From Motiliproteus sp. (GTDB lineage: Bacteria; Pseudomonadota; Gammaproteobacteria; Pseudomonadales; Balneatricaceae): a DNA stretch of 47,308 nt. The translations under genes and the position numbers were made by a program. Every line of letters starts with the position of its first letter. Within the stretch, counting starts at the first letter, position 1. Positions 1-3,727 of the stretch are shown one piece after another. The notes beneath the pieces are model-generated. The model saw only the letters and a program-made list of their open reading frames with translations. It ran no database searches and was not told where the DNA came from. The DNA lies in NCBI GenBank assembly GCA_026196225.1, contig JAPHRD010000024.1, positions 1 through 47,308 on the forward strand, in the 5' to 3' direction.

Positions 1-908
1 CTGAGCTCGGGGTGGGTCAGGTCAACGCCAGTATCGATCACCGCCACCGGAATCTTGCCGCCGTCATACTGCACAGCCAAGCGGTCCGATTGGCTCAGTG
101 CCGGTCCATAGTTGAACGCAGCCAGAGGATCGGCCTCATCGGCCATGGTGAAGTAGGCGAACTCTTTTTGGACCTCCAGGGTGTTCTGGTCGGATTTCAG
201 AGTAATCACCCAATCATCCAGAGAGATACCCGGCTCAACCCGCAGCATCACAGCCAATCGGTCACCCGTGGATTTCAATTGGGTTTCGCTGATTAAACGC
301 AGGCCGTTGCGCTGTGCCAAAGCCTCTGCGGCTTCACCCTCAGCAGGTAATGACACCAACAACATATTGGCTCGCCAGTGGGGTTTCAGATACTCCGCAG
401 GTGTTTCTTCGCTCTGACAGGGCTGCAGCTGCTGAAGGTTCCAGCAAGCCGGATCACTGCCCTGCGGGAAACTTCCGTTAAAGGGTTGTGCCTGCAGATT
501 GCTGGGACAACTTTGCCCCTGGCCTGACAACGCCGCCTTCAGGTCCGGCGCTTTTGGAGTCAGCCAACGCTTTACCGGCTGCTGAGTCGCTGCGCGGACG
601 CCCTGACAAGTATCGACACTGCACTGCGGGCCAAAACCCCCGCTCTGACACTGCTGACTGAGTTGTTGCCATTGTTGGTCGTCCGCACGGAAGTTAATAA
701 ACTGCTTGCCGCCCTGACCTTGTTGAATCTGCCAATCTTTTAGCTGGTGTTGCTGGGCCCACTGTTTGGCATTCCAATTACCGGGCAGCTCGATGGAACG
801 CATCGGCTGCTGGGTTTGCTTCAGCAGGGGCGTTCCCTGCCAGCTCCATGACTGGATGGGCAAAGCAATCGTGCCGATCAGCAGTAAGATAGAAAATAAC
901 GGTTTCAT
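1..908 (-). CDS. Exported subtilisin-like serine protease (S8), partial, runs off the window
   Basis: About 302 N-terminal residues are visible; the 3' part lies beyond base 1. It opens with a signal peptide (Met-Lys, hydrophobic core, about 20 residues). A Gln-rich segment with six cysteines follows (roughly residues 65-165). Residues about 170-245 look like a fervidolysin-type S8 prodomain, with alternating strands and helices and a GISLDD turn. The catalytic domain then begins with the Asp motif VAVIDTGVDLTHPEL, Asp292. The His, Asn and Ser motifs would lie outside the window. The start ATG at 908 follows an AGAGGAA Shine-Dalgarno and sits 16 bases after the stop of the neighbouring S8 gene, so it is probably the fourth gene of the ECF sigma operon. 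Likely role: secreted or periplasmic proteolysis; the substrate is unknown. Confidence 0.85.
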   Translation of the reverse strand, partial: MKPLFSILLLIGTIALPIQSWSWQGTPLLKQTQQPMRSIELPGNWNAKQWAQQHQLKDWQIQQGQGGKQFINFRADDQQWQQLSQQCQSGGFGPQCSVDTCQGVRAATQQPVKRWLTPKAPDLKAALSGQGQSCPSNLQAQPFNGSFPQGSDPACWNLQQLQPCQSEETPAEYLKPHWRANMLLVSLPAEGEAAEALAQRNGLRLISETQLKSTGDRLAVMLRVEPGISLDDWVITLKSDQNTLEVQKEFAYFTMADEADPLAAFNYGPALSQSDRLAVQYDGGKIPVAVIDTGVDLTHPEL

Positions 909-924
909 GATTCTATTCCTCTGC

Positions 925-2481
925 TCACTTGGCTGCCGATTGTGGTAGTTGCAACTGCAGTCGGCTATGACGCAGGCCACCATCAAGATGCTCGACGGTC
1001 AGCCGCACCGTAACCAATCCGCCAGGCAATGTGGAGGGATCGAAGCGATACAGGGTCGACTCCACCATCCCTTGGCTCATGGGTTTCCCCAAGGGGTGCC
1101 ATTGGCTTGGCTGTTCACCTTGGCCGAATTGCAGATAGGCCTGAGCAAACAGATCCGCATCGGCGCTTCCGTTCAAGCTCAGCGTGCGGTCGTCGTTGAG
1201 CACAGCACCGGTAAGCTGGGCGTTTATATAACGCTGCGGATCGCTGGCTAATGCCTGCATCGCATCGACCGCCCCATAGCCGTGATTGCTATCGCTACCT
1301 TCTGGCCCCAGATCCCGGGCCGACTGAGTCAACATATGATTCAGGTTGCGAGGTTCCATCCAAGGATCACGTCCCAGCAGTAAAGCGGCCAGACCGGTAA
1401 CATAGGGGGCAGCGAAAGAGTTTCCGGTTGCCCGATAATATTCCCGATCCACAACAGCAGCTTCCGGTTGGTAATCTTTGCTGCCGTTCCGGCGCAGAAA
1501 GTCGCTGCCCCGTGCCCTTAACGAGAGGATCTCCACCCCCGGAGCTAACAGGTCCAAGTCCGCACCCCAGTTACTAAACTCTGCACGCTGACCATCGGGG
1601 CCCAGACTACCCACCACCAGCACGCCATCGAGGCTTTCGTAGCCGTTGGCATCACCACTGGCCTGATTGCCGGCAGCGGTCACCACCAGCACTTCCCGCT
1701 GCTGGGCATAAGCTAGAGCATCCTGCTCGGCAGCACCAGGAACTTGCCCGCCTAAACTGAGGTGGATAATCCGTACGCCTTTGTCGACGGCATAGCGAAT
1801 GGCACGGGCAATATCGCTACCGTTACCGTGGCCACTGCCATCAAGGGCTTTCAGCACCATCAACTGTGCGTTGGGAGCAACACCGGCAATACCGATGCTG
1901 TTATTGGTATCTGCGGCAATAATTCCGGCCACGAGGGTACCGTGGCCGTGATCATCCCAGGGCGCGTTGGTATCGTTGATAAAATTCCAGCCGATCAAGT
2001 CATCGATCAGGCCATTACCATCATCATCACGCCCGTTGCTGCGTTCACCAGGATTGCGCCATAGTTGCGAGGGAGGAAGATCGGGATGGGTATAGTCGAC
2101 ACCGGTATCGATCACCGCCACCACCACCGGTTCCAATCTTAACGGATAACCAGAACCGTACTCCGGCGCCACCATGCCCCGGTGCATACTAACCAGATTG
2201 AGGGCGTAGAGTCCCCATTGGTCTTGGTAGTCCTGTCCCCAACTGCCATAGCTCTGAGACAACGGATCGTTAACAGCTCGTCCCCGTGGACTGGCACCGA
2301 TCACCGAGATCGCTGTCACTGTTTCATCCTGCCGGCTGTTATCGATCTCCACCAGCACCTGATCGATCTGCTTGGGAGCAACCTGCAGCTCAGCACTACC
2401 GCCGGGTTGCCCTGCTGGCGGCTGGGCAAGCAACGGCATGGCTATGGCCATCGCAGTGACCGCCAAGACACTTCTGTTCAT
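925..2481 (-). CDS. Exported subtilisin-like serine protease (S8)
   Basis: 518 residues. A signal peptide spans residues 1-19 or so. The catalytic triad and oxyanion residue are all visible: Asp125 in VAVIDTGVDYTHPDL, His180 in DDHGHGTLVAGI, Asn272 in TAAGNQ and Ser355 in GNSFAAP. Between Asp and His is an Asp-rich calcium-type loop (DDDGNGLIDD, 152-161). Residues about 422-513 look like the beta-sandwich domain often found after S8 catalytic domains (…STLPGGLVTVRLTVEH…). Only about 50 residues separate the signal peptide from the segment leading into the catalytic domain, so a full inhibitory prodomain seems absent. The start codon overlaps the anti-sigma stop (ATGA), indicating translational coupling. 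The active site is intact; the substrate is unknown. Confidence 0.93.
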   Translation of the reverse strand: MNRSVLAVTAMAIAMPLLAQPPAGQPGGSAELQVAPKQIDQVLVEIDNSRQDETVTAISVIGASPRGRAVNDPLSQSYGSWGQDYQDQWGLYALNLVSMHRGMVAPEYGSGYPLRLEPVVVAVIDTGVDYTHPDLPPSQLWRNPGERSNGRDDDGNGLIDDLIGWNFINDTNAPWDDHGHGTLVAGIIAADTNNSIGIAGVAPNAQLMVLKALDGSGHGNGSDIARAIRYAVDKGVRIIHLSLGGQVPGAAEQDALAYAQQREVLVVTAAGNQASGDANGYESLDGVLVVGSLGPDGQRAEFSNWGADLDLLAPGVEILSLRARGSDFLRRNGSKDYQPEAAVVDREYYRATGNSFAAPYVTGLAALLLGRDPWMEPRNLNHMLTQSARDLGPEGSDSNHGYGAVDAMQALASDPQRYINAQLTGAVLNDDRTLSLNGSADADLFAQAYLQFGQGEQPSQWHPLGKPMSQGMVESTLYRFDPSTLPGGLVTVRLTVEHLDGGLRHSRLQLQLPQSAAK

Positions 2482-3143
2482 GGTTCCACTCTCTGTAGGT
2501 AGATCACGCCTTCACCGGCTTTCAGGGTAGCCAGAGCCTGATCCACATCGCTGCCCTGTGGCAGACTGATACGGTAGATACCCAAGCTATTGGGACCTGA
2601 AACGATCATCGCCTGCTGGGCTTTCAGCAGCGCCTGGAACTGGCCGATGGTTAGATCAGGTTTGACGCCAATATCCAACTGAATACCGGCATCAACCACC
2701 ACCGGATCACCGCCGGACAATACTTCGTAACCCTCATCCGCCGTCGGCATAATCAACACAGCGCCCAACGCCATCACTACGGCAAATTGAGACACCACCG
2801 CTACCTTGGCAAACTGGGGTGTCATGCCCCATTGAAAAGTCTCATTAAACCAGTTCTGCAGTCGCTCCATCATGGAGGGAGCCTGATCTCGCTGCAGCTC
2901 ATTGGCCGCTTGGGTTTCTTCAGTTTCAATGCGCTCTAACAGATCATCAAACAGATCTTCGCGCATCACCGCTTCCTGCTCCCCCACCTCGCTGACGGTT
3001 TCATTCAGAAACTCGATCTCAGCCAGCTGCAGTTGCGCCTCAGGATTATCCTCCAACCAGGCTTCCACCTGTTTGCGTTCGGACTCCTCTAGTGTGCCGT
3101 TTGCATACCAGGGCAGCAGTTCTTCTAAATTTCGGTCGCTCAT
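2478..3143 (-). CDS. Transmembrane anti-sigma factor with subtilase-prodomain-like periplasmic tail
   Basis: 221 residues. The N-terminus (LEELLPWYANGTLEESER, residues 6-23) matches the zinc-less anti-sigma domain pattern seen in RskA-type proteins and lacks the HxxxCxxC zinc motif. One transmembrane helix lies at about 113-133, placing 134-221 in the periplasm. That tail (153-221) has the order strand, helix, GPNSLGIYRISLPQGSD, an ALATLK helix and a VIYLQRV strand, the layout of S8 prodomains. It overlaps the sigma gene (ATGA) with an AGGAGGAG Shine-Dalgarno, and its stop overlaps the first protease start. Inferred role: hold the ECF sigma factor at the membrane until a periplasmic event, perhaps protease binding, releases it. 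Confidence 0.82.
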   Translation of the reverse strand: MSDRNLEELLPWYANGTLEESERKQVEAWLEDNPEAQLQLAEIEFLNETVSEVGEQEAVMREDLFDDLLERIETEETQAANELQRDQAPSMMERLQNWFNETFQWGMTPQFAKVAVVSQFAVVMALGAVLIMPTADEGYEVLSGGDPVVVDAGIQLDIGVKPDLTIGQFQALLKAQQAMIVSGPNSLGIYRISLPQGSDVDQALATLKAGEGVIYLQRVEP

Positions 3144-3727
3144 ATCACTCCTCCTGCATCTGCTACCGACACCCCCATGTTTTGCAGCCAGGGTTTTAAC
3201 TTAGCCCTGGCGTGAAACATTCGGGTTTTTACCGTGTTTTCGGGACACTGCAATATCTGCGCAATCTCCGGATAAGAATGGCCGTGGAAAAAAGTCAGCT
3301 CCATCACCTCCCGATGTTCATCGGAGAGTCTGTCCAGGGCGTTGCGTAACAGCCCCTTAAGTTGCTCTTGCGATTTCACCTGACTAAGATCCTGCTGTTC
3401 GTCTACCGCTTCCGGAGCTTCATCGAGTCCTACCGTATCCAGCTTTTTACCCCGCACCGCATTGAGGGTGCGAAAACGTGCGATACCTAGAATCCAGGTG
3501 GATGGCGAAGAACGTCCTTCAAAACTGGCCGCACTTTTCCACACTTCCATCATCACATCGTTCACCACCTCTTCTGCTTTGGCTTCATCGCGCATCATAC
3601 GGATGACAAAGCGAAAGATTCGGGTCGAGTAACGCGCATACAGTAGTCGCAATGCAGCCTTATCGCCTTTCCCGATACTATGGATCCAGGCAACCTCTTC
3701 GGCTGTACGCTGACTTGCTTCATCCAT
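3140..3727 (-). CDS. ECF-family RNA polymerase sigma factor
   Basis: 195 residues from the ATG at 3727, chosen because GGGAGGG (3735-3741) lies 7 bases upstream; the longer reading frame to 3799 has no such site. Sigma region 2 is near residues 25-95 (LRLLYARYSTRIFRFVIRMM, then the TWILGIARFRTLNAVR segment). Region 4 is near 130-185 with the helix-turn-helix SYPEIAQILQCPENTVKTRM. Regions 1.1 and 3 are absent, as expected for ECF factors. It is the first gene of the operon with its cognate anti-sigma factor and two S8 proteases. It probably directs transcription of its own operon, but I could not identify a convincing ECF promoter upstream. Confidence 0.93.
   Translation of the reverse strand: MDEASQRTAEEVAWIHSIGKGDKAALRLLYARYSTRIFRFVIRMMRDEAKAEEVVNDVMMEVWKSAASFEGRSSPSTWILGIARFRTLNAVRGKKLDTVGLDEAPEAVDEQQDLSQVKSQEQLKGLLRNALDRLSDEHREVMELTFFHGHSYPEIAQILQCPENTVKTRMFHARAKLKPWLQNMGVSVADAGGVI

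What the first reader, a model, noticed from the sequence alone, without database searches (positions are those of the whole stretch)
1..3727. ECF sigma / anti-sigma / double subtilase operon with a prodomain-mimic anti-sigma tail
Seen: four coupled minus-strand genes (ATGA overlaps at 3140-3143 and 2478-2481; 16-base gap before 908). The anti-sigma periplasmic tail (residues 153-221) has the strand-helix-strand, LPQGSD turn, ALATLK helix and final strand arrangement of S8 prodomains. The first protease has only about 50 residues between its signal peptide and catalytic region. Known: S8 prodomains fold, inhibit and bind their protease. Inference: the anti-sigma factor may bind the exported proteases through a prodomain-like module, so protease abundance, folding or target engagement sets sigma release. 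It could also act as a chaperone or inhibitor in trans.
Basis: partly seen in the sequence, partly recalled or inferred. Interest (0 to 1): 0.82.

Follow-up and report, generated by a model that had tools for sequence, protein, structure and literature searches.

The report
Anti-sigma factor with subtilase-prodomain tail
A bacterial gene switch carries, on its outward-facing end, a domain of the family that normally folds and restrains subtilisin-type proteases, and it is usually encoded right next to such a protease, so the cell may read the state of its own exported protease directly.

Summary
Window 3-3727 (minus strand) holds an ECF sigma factor, an anti-sigma factor and two exported S8 subtilases, with ATGA overlaps. 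The second subtilase is cut by the contig end; synteny puts its other half and a fifth gene on another contig. The anti-sigma tail (residues 155-219) is predicted as beta-alpha-beta-beta-alpha-beta. Scanned alone it passes the cut-off of Pfam's subtilase-prodomain family PF22148 (21.9 vs 21 bits); 53 of 95 tails (window included) match that family. Of 80 fetched relatives, 74 have the tail and enough sequence downstream: 64 are followed directly by an S8 gene, 6 by a caspase (C14) gene, 4 by neither. Of 37 tail-less anti-sigmas, 1 is followed by S8. Binding to the protease is unproven, and three points restrain it: at least three swaps to caspases, two genomes with the tail but no S8 or C14 match, and a tail that in the window and in 56 of 83 S8-linked relatives seems too short to reach the active site. 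Most likely the tail docks the operon's peptidase near the membrane, leading to anti-sigma cleavage. I found no description in print.

The parts
3140..3727 (-). ECF sigma factor (195 aa)
   Evidence: Pfam Sigma70_r2 54.8 bits, Sigma70_r4_2 58.6 bits; NCBIfam PRK12515 192.8 bits, under its own cut-off of 236
2478..3143 (-). Anti-sigma factor (221 aa): N-terminal helical domain, one hydrophobic helix, C-terminal tail
   Evidence: NCBIfam anti-sigma models about 33 bits and Pfam zf-HC2 14.9 bits, all below cut-off; 26 of 28 aligned members (window included) match zf-HC2 at E<=1; model mab8e8639bcfd
2751..2819 (-). Hydrophobic helix, residues 109-131, presumed membrane span; a low-confidence stretch follows (about residues 131-150)
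   Evidence: AlphaFold2 helix 109-131, mean pLDDT 58 in residues 131-150; membrane span read by eye, no predictor run
2487..2681 (-). Prodomain-family tail, residues 155-219, beta-alpha-beta-beta-alpha-beta
   Evidence: PF22148 21.9 bits for the tail alone; models; S8 prodomains among the matches
925..2481 (-). Exported S8 subtilase A (518 aa), catalytic triad motifs present, no recognisable prodomain
   Evidence: Pfam Peptidase_S8 E 2.7e-55, residues 119-403, nothing else at E<=5; motifs; signal peptide by eye
3..908 (-). Exported S8 subtilase B, N-terminal 302 residues only (contig end); by eye a prodomain-like region at about residues 170-250, then the Asp motif
   Evidence: aligns to residues 4-359 of the L092 subtilase B, while the C30 fragment aligns to 371-592; no Pfam family over cut-off

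Best explanation
The operon is a self-regulating secreted-peptidase module. The ECF sigma factor is held at the membrane by an anti-sigma factor whose periplasmic sensor is a domesticated subtilase-prodomain-family domain. SHOWN by computation: the operon, the family and predicted fold of the tail, its close linkage to a peptidase gene. INFERRED: the tail docks onto the operon's exported peptidase through the surface that real prodomains use. Where the tail is too short to reach the active site, as in the window, that site stays free, and the docked peptidase cuts, or exposes to cutting, the disordered stretch between membrane helix and tail. Regulated intramembrane proteolysis then frees sigma, which transcribes its own operon. 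Thus the amount, folding or release of mature protease sets sigma activity. In the caspase versions another peptidase class fills the same slot.
For: The tail scanned alone passes PF22148; 53 of 95 tails (window included) match it at E<=0.1, the next family (ACT_4) 3 of 95. Fold. Linkage: 70 of 74 tail-bearing loci have S8 (64) or C14 (6) directly downstream, against 1 of 37 tail-less controls (Fisher p 1.7e-23). A tail-first phylum sample gives 22 S8 and 2 C14 downstream and 2 S8 upstream of 27. The tree forces at least three changes to C14. None of six operon subtilases scanned (window A and B part; L092 A and B, L003, L025) has a PF22148 hit of its own. 56 of 83 S8-linked tails have fewer than 6 residues after the last strand. 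The linker is predicted at low confidence, read as disorder.
Against: No direct evidence of contact. Genomes G382 and G603 keep the tail but have no S8 and no C14 match. The fold is common: ribosomal S6 and ACT domains score as well. 27 of 83 S8-linked tails have 6 or more residues after the last strand, enough for an active-site peptide. Mirror-tree test inconclusive: partial correlation tail-S8 0.12 (anti-sigma N-domain-S8 0.02), but tail-sigma 0.23, and 0.47 for the presumed contact pair N-domain-sigma. A sigma that simply controls a protease gene would give the same gene order.
Confidence: 0.45

Rival explanations
1. The tail is an independent envelope sensor (a ferredoxin-like domain of prodomain ancestry) that binds some other ligand or itself; the peptidase is merely an output gene of the sigma factor and never touches the tail.
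For: Tail present where no S8 or C14 is found; partner swaps leave the tail in place; sigma and S8 distances correlate at 0.85, as an output gene inherited with its sigma would show.
Against: The family match is to subtilase prodomains rather than to ligand-binding families: 53 of 95 PF22148 against 3 ACT_4 and 1 AsnC. 36 of 37 tail-less anti-sigmas lack the peptidase gene directly downstream, so tail and peptidase go together more closely than a generic sensor needs.
Confidence: 0.3
2. The tail is a prodomain acting in trans: it helps the prodomain-less subtilase A fold after export, and/or inhibits it, as the ORF2 chaperone does for the propeptide-deficient Aeromonas subtilase; sigma release is coupled to folding load.
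For: Subtilase A has no recognisable prodomain in the window or in the ortholog L092. The ORF2 complex is among the Foldseek matches (3wqb_B, rank 15, E 0.016). ORF2 is encoded beside its subtilase, is needed for its maturation and inhibits it (PMC5638518, passages read).
Against: In the 60 other subtilases where the pattern placed the Asp motif it lies at residue 158 or later, leaving room for an own prodomain. The window tail lacks the terminal residues that in ORF2 reach the active site, and 56 of 83 S8-linked tails look short.
Confidence: 0.15
3. The resemblance is superficial: a ferredoxin-like fold reached independently, with the family match due to a generic pattern.
For: Foldseek gives no match below E 1e-3 and many unrelated ferredoxin-like proteins; the tail against the operon's own subtilase prodomain regions is only 47% and 81% probable; profile search of PDB sequences found no subtilase.
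Against: PF22148 is the only family hit repeatedly (53 of 95, best 2.6e-8); column shuffles of the own-prodomain alignments reach the observed score in 0 of 200 and 1 of 200 cases, the one being a 12-column end match.
Confidence: 0.1

Closest known systems
RsiV, lysozyme-receptor anti-sigma factor of sigma-V, Bacillus subtilis (PMC5014341, abstract and outline seen)
   Same: Anti-sigma factor whose outer domain binds an enzyme; in RsiV binding triggers site-1 cleavage and inhibits the enzyme
   Different: RsiV senses lysozyme; here the presumed partner is the operon's own exported peptidase, the domain is of the subtilase-prodomain family, and binding is not shown
ORF2, external chaperone of Aeromonas sobria subtilase ASP (PMC5638518, passages seen; complex 3wqb)
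   Same: Module encoded beside a propeptide-deficient subtilase; chaperone and inhibitor in trans
   Different: ORF2 is a protein of its own encoded downstream of the protease; here the module is the C-terminal domain of an anti-sigma factor encoded upstream, and the window's lacks the active-site peptide
ECF54 sigma factors with subtilase, carboxypeptidase and CHAT genes in context (review PMC8999054, passages seen)
   Same: ECF sigma genes linked to subtilases and caspase-related domains
   Different: ECF54 is proposed to be controlled without an anti-sigma factor; here an anti-sigma factor with a prodomain-family tail is the conserved part
PF22148 Fervidolysin_NPro-like prodomains
   Same: Sequence profile and predicted fold of the tail
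   Different: By the family's name those stand N-terminal to the protease; here the domain is C-terminal in a regulator

Membership tests
PF22148 Fervidolysin_NPro-like | Profile score over the curated cut-off (21 bits) | tested here: met
   Tail alone 21.9 bits, E 2.3e-4; whole protein 19.7 bits, just under
PF22148 Fervidolysin_NPro-like | Beta-alpha-beta-beta-alpha-beta fold of subtilase prodomains | tested here: met
PF22148 Fervidolysin_NPro-like | N-terminal to an S8 catalytic domain in the same chain (recalled) | tested here: not met
   The domain ends the anti-sigma factor; the S8 is a separate gene. So: member by sequence profile, not a prodomain by architecture
PF22148 Fervidolysin_NPro-like | Binds, folds or inhibits a subtilase | not testable with these tools
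   No complex prediction or assay available
ECF sigma / class I anti-sigma pair | Sigma with regions 2 and 4 | tested here: met
ECF sigma / class I anti-sigma pair | N-terminal zf-HC2-type domain in the anti-sigma | tested here: inconclusive
   Window protein 14.9 bits against 22.2, zinc ligands missing by eye; 26 of 28 aligned members match the family at E<=1
RsiV-like enzyme-receptor anti-sigma | Outer domain binds an enzyme and binding triggers site-1 cleavage | not testable with these tools
   Needs binding and cleavage assays
ORF2-like external subtilase chaperone | A protein of its own, PF18492 profile | tested here: not met
   Tail is part of an anti-sigma factor; PF18492 was hit only by subtilase B, E 0.27, below cut-off
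ORF2-like external subtilase chaperone | Encoded beside a propeptide-deficient subtilase | tested here: met
   Subtilase A in the window and in L092; not so in the 60 other subtilases with a placed Asp motif

The most novel reading that the evidence does not exclude
A whole class of anti-sigma factors, found in several phyla, has taken over a protease prodomain as its sensor, so that bacteria measure the state of their own exported subtilase (or, after partner swaps, caspase) by direct docking. In the window's lineage the anti-sigma factor would also serve as the missing prodomain of subtilase A.
Probability: 0.3. Interest if true: 0.85.

Novelty: new variant of a known kind. Interest (0 to 1): 0.66.

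Why it matters
What most ECF anti-sigma factors sense is unknown (recalled). Here the sensor domain itself names a candidate partner, encoded next door in dozens of genomes, so the question becomes testable with two purified proteins and one reporter strain. If true, a protease prodomain has become a signalling receptor, and the same slot has been re-used for caspase-type peptidases.

Tried and rejected
A PDB sequence search with the tail found only designed repeat proteins, and the 95-row profile found no subtilase at E<=5. Foldseek and VIA do not single out prodomains: ribosomal S6, ACT and AsnC-type domains rank equal or higher. The claim rests on PF22148, not on the fold.

Tail against the operon's own subtilase prodomain regions: detectable but weak (81% and 47%), so I do not claim that the tail is a recent copy of the neighbour's prodomain. 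In the phylum search with the tail profile, 29 of 30 matches lie in frames that also match the anti-sigma profile, and L208 was not resolved: the profile did not reach a clear subtilase prodomain.

Mirror-tree test for contact on 61 loci: inconclusive (tail-S8 partial 0.12, 0 of 500 permutations as high, but tail-sigma 0.23). Lipobox search: 31 of 89 S8 genes show a lipobox-like motif, several false by eye; no weight given. Zinc or redox sensing by the anti-sigma N-domain was set aside for the window, which by eye lacks the zinc ligands.

Seven literature searches showed no paper on an anti-sigma factor with a subtilase-prodomain domain. They show only the top of the lists (for example 12 of 161 papers, 15 of 438), judged from titles and abstract starts; beyond that I saw passages of PMC8999054 and PMC7406223. 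The 2021 ECF reclassification (DOI recalled) is not held; its context tables could already list this S8 linkage.

A co-fold of tail and protease was not attempted: the folding tool takes single unchanged proteins.

Full report
The region is as described. Four minus-strand genes run sigma (3140-3727), anti-sigma (2478-3143), subtilase A (925-2481) and subtilase B (3-908, open at the contig start), with two ATGA overlaps and a 16-base gap. Pfam confirms the sigma and subtilase A; subtilase B has only its N-terminal 302 residues here. This genome gives two S8 matches: subtilase A and a 5'-open fragment at the end of contig C30.

A relative, L092 (record titled Pseudomonadales bacterium, a metagenome genome), holds the complete operon: sigma, anti-sigma, subtilase A without prodomain, subtilase B with a long N-terminal part, and a fifth gene. 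The window's subtilase B part aligns to residues 4-359 of the L092 protein, the C30 fragment to 371-592, and the gene after it on C30 matches the L092 fifth gene (35.5% identity over 276 columns). So the operon very probably has five genes, split over two contigs; the pieces were not joined. On the tree the window and L092 anti-sigmas are sisters (100/98).

Linkage, first sample. A search with the window protein in 293 genomes of the order found 10 with matches, its own included. In 7 of the 9 others (L003-L009) the match is a tail-bearing anti-sigma; six have S8 directly behind it, L008 374 bases on. L010 and L011 are no members.

Second sample. The scan of genome contigs used only an N-terminal motif of the anti-sigma, so the tail did not steer the pattern, although confirmation and ranking used a tail-bearing query (182 confirmed, best 80 kept). 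Of these 80, 77 have the tail at 20 bits or more; L100, L106 and L124 do not and have no S8 or C14 directly downstream. Three of the 77 lack 600 bases downstream (L047, L096, L105). Of the 74 left, 64 have S8 directly downstream, 6 have C14 (four by the rule; L101 and L118 by eye, because a longer reading frame hides the start), and 4 have neither (L063, L072, L076, L078). Of those 4, L076 and L078 have an S8 elsewhere in the locus, and L072 looks broken and lies near L088, which has S8. The 80 include close relatives (for example five Dyella, four Massilia), so they are not independent.

Controls. Forty loci were picked by hand from the weaker matches, which had not covered the tail. One (L126) proved to have the tail, and S8. 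Of the 39 tail-less ones 37 have 600 bases downstream; one (L129) has S8 there. By eye its C-terminus looks like a divergent tail, but no prodomain family hits it. One more (L144) has an S8 on the other strand. Fisher's test for 70 of 74 against 1 of 37 gives 1.7e-23. The two sets were drawn differently and hold relatives, so the p-value describes rather than proves.

Third and fourth samples. The class search (loci up to L044, window included, partly the same genomes as the 80) gives, of 28 tail-bearing loci with room, 22 S8, 1 C14 and 5 neither; of 7 loci under 20 bits, two weak-tail ones (15-16 bits) have S8 and 5 have nothing. One of the 5 'neither' (L021) is followed by an open frame cut by the contig end that resembles a subtilase N-terminus by eye. 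The phylum search with the tail alone found 30 matches in 28 of 299 genomes, several from the same two genera. Leaving out the window itself, one at a contig edge (L196) and one without a readable frame (L208), 27 remain: 22 S8 downstream, 2 C14 downstream (L207 weakly, 40 bits), 2 S8 upstream (L186, L187), 1 none (L210).

Exceptions matter. A caspase partner scanned is a genuine Peptidase_C14 (117.9 bits for L087), and the seven C14 loci on the tree need at least three separate changes. Of five caspase-linked tails scanned, one matches PF22148, weakly (E 0.088), so these tails have drifted. Genomes G382 and G603 (completeness 100 and 99) carry the tail between unrelated genes and have no S8 and no C14 match. 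The related G503 has such an orphan plus a normal operon with S8. A fourth orphan, L036 in G590, lies in a genome with nine S8 matches elsewhere. The tail therefore can live without a peptidase gene beside it.

Subtilases. The Asp-motif pattern was placed in 62 of 91 neighbouring S8 proteins and missed 29. It lies at residue 125 in window subtilase A and 76 in L092 subtilase A, and at 158 or later in the other 60 (misplaced in L081 and L082; start codons are the first in frame, so lengths may be too long). Subtilase A thus looks propeptide-deficient only in the window's lineage. None of six subtilases scanned has a PF22148 hit. Profile comparison of tails with the own prodomain regions gives 81% (group 2, 0 of 200 column shuffles as high) and 47% (group 1, 1 of 200, a 12-column end match).

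Mechanism. In VIA the model's residues 153-221 pair with residues 7-73 of the 77-residue subtilisin propeptide 1spb_P, so its last four residues, which occupy the active site in the complex (recalled), have no counterpart in the window's protein. By that measure a tail needs about 6 residues after the last strand to reach; on one alignment of 102 tails (with near-duplicates) 56 of 83 S8-linked ones have fewer and 27 have 6 or more. A docking module that leaves the active site free therefore fits the window and about two thirds of the family, not all. With the low-confidence linker, and with a peptidase gene directly downstream in 70 of 74, I favour docking followed by cleavage near the membrane, as in the RsiV-lysozyme system, where enzyme binding is required for site-1 cleavage (abstract of PMC5014341). 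The in-trans prodomain reading has a precedent in ORF2 of Aeromonas (PMC5638518 passages) and is the rival for the window's lineage. Contact itself is untested; a mirror-tree test was inconclusive.

Novelty. ECF genes near subtilases and CHAT proteins are known for ECF54, proposed to be controlled without an anti-sigma factor (PMC8999054 passages). I found no paper on a prodomain-family anti-sigma sensor (judged from capped listings), and the main ECF classification paper was not held. I rate it a new variant of a known kind.

Noticed in passing
L015:10096-11361 (contig C30 of the same genome) and L092:10101-11114: A fifth operon gene after subtilase B, no Pfam family over cut-off, matched only between the window's genome and L092 among the loci then held.
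   Followed up: partly
L032, L067, L087, L101, L109, L118, L121, L190, L207: Same anti-sigma tail directly followed by a caspase-domain (C14) gene instead of S8; the first seven need at least three changes on the tree.
   Followed up: partly
L021:2034-2873, L028:3-833, and by eye upstream of sigma in L004, L007, L008, L012: A similar gene upstream of the sigma gene in several S8 versions, with weak Ig/fn3-like matches below cut-off; not seen upstream of sigma in the window.
   Followed up: no
L072:6001-6717 (Methylotetracoccus oryzae): Anti-sigma copy that by eye seems split into frames, near an intact copy with S8 (L088) on the same contig.
   Followed up: no
L165, L166, L168: Tail-bearing anti-sigma and its sigma between other genes (in two of three a Gfo/Idh-like gene, dapB-like gene upstream; names by eye), with no S8 or C14 in the fetched stretch; two of the three genomes have neither at all.
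   Followed up: partly
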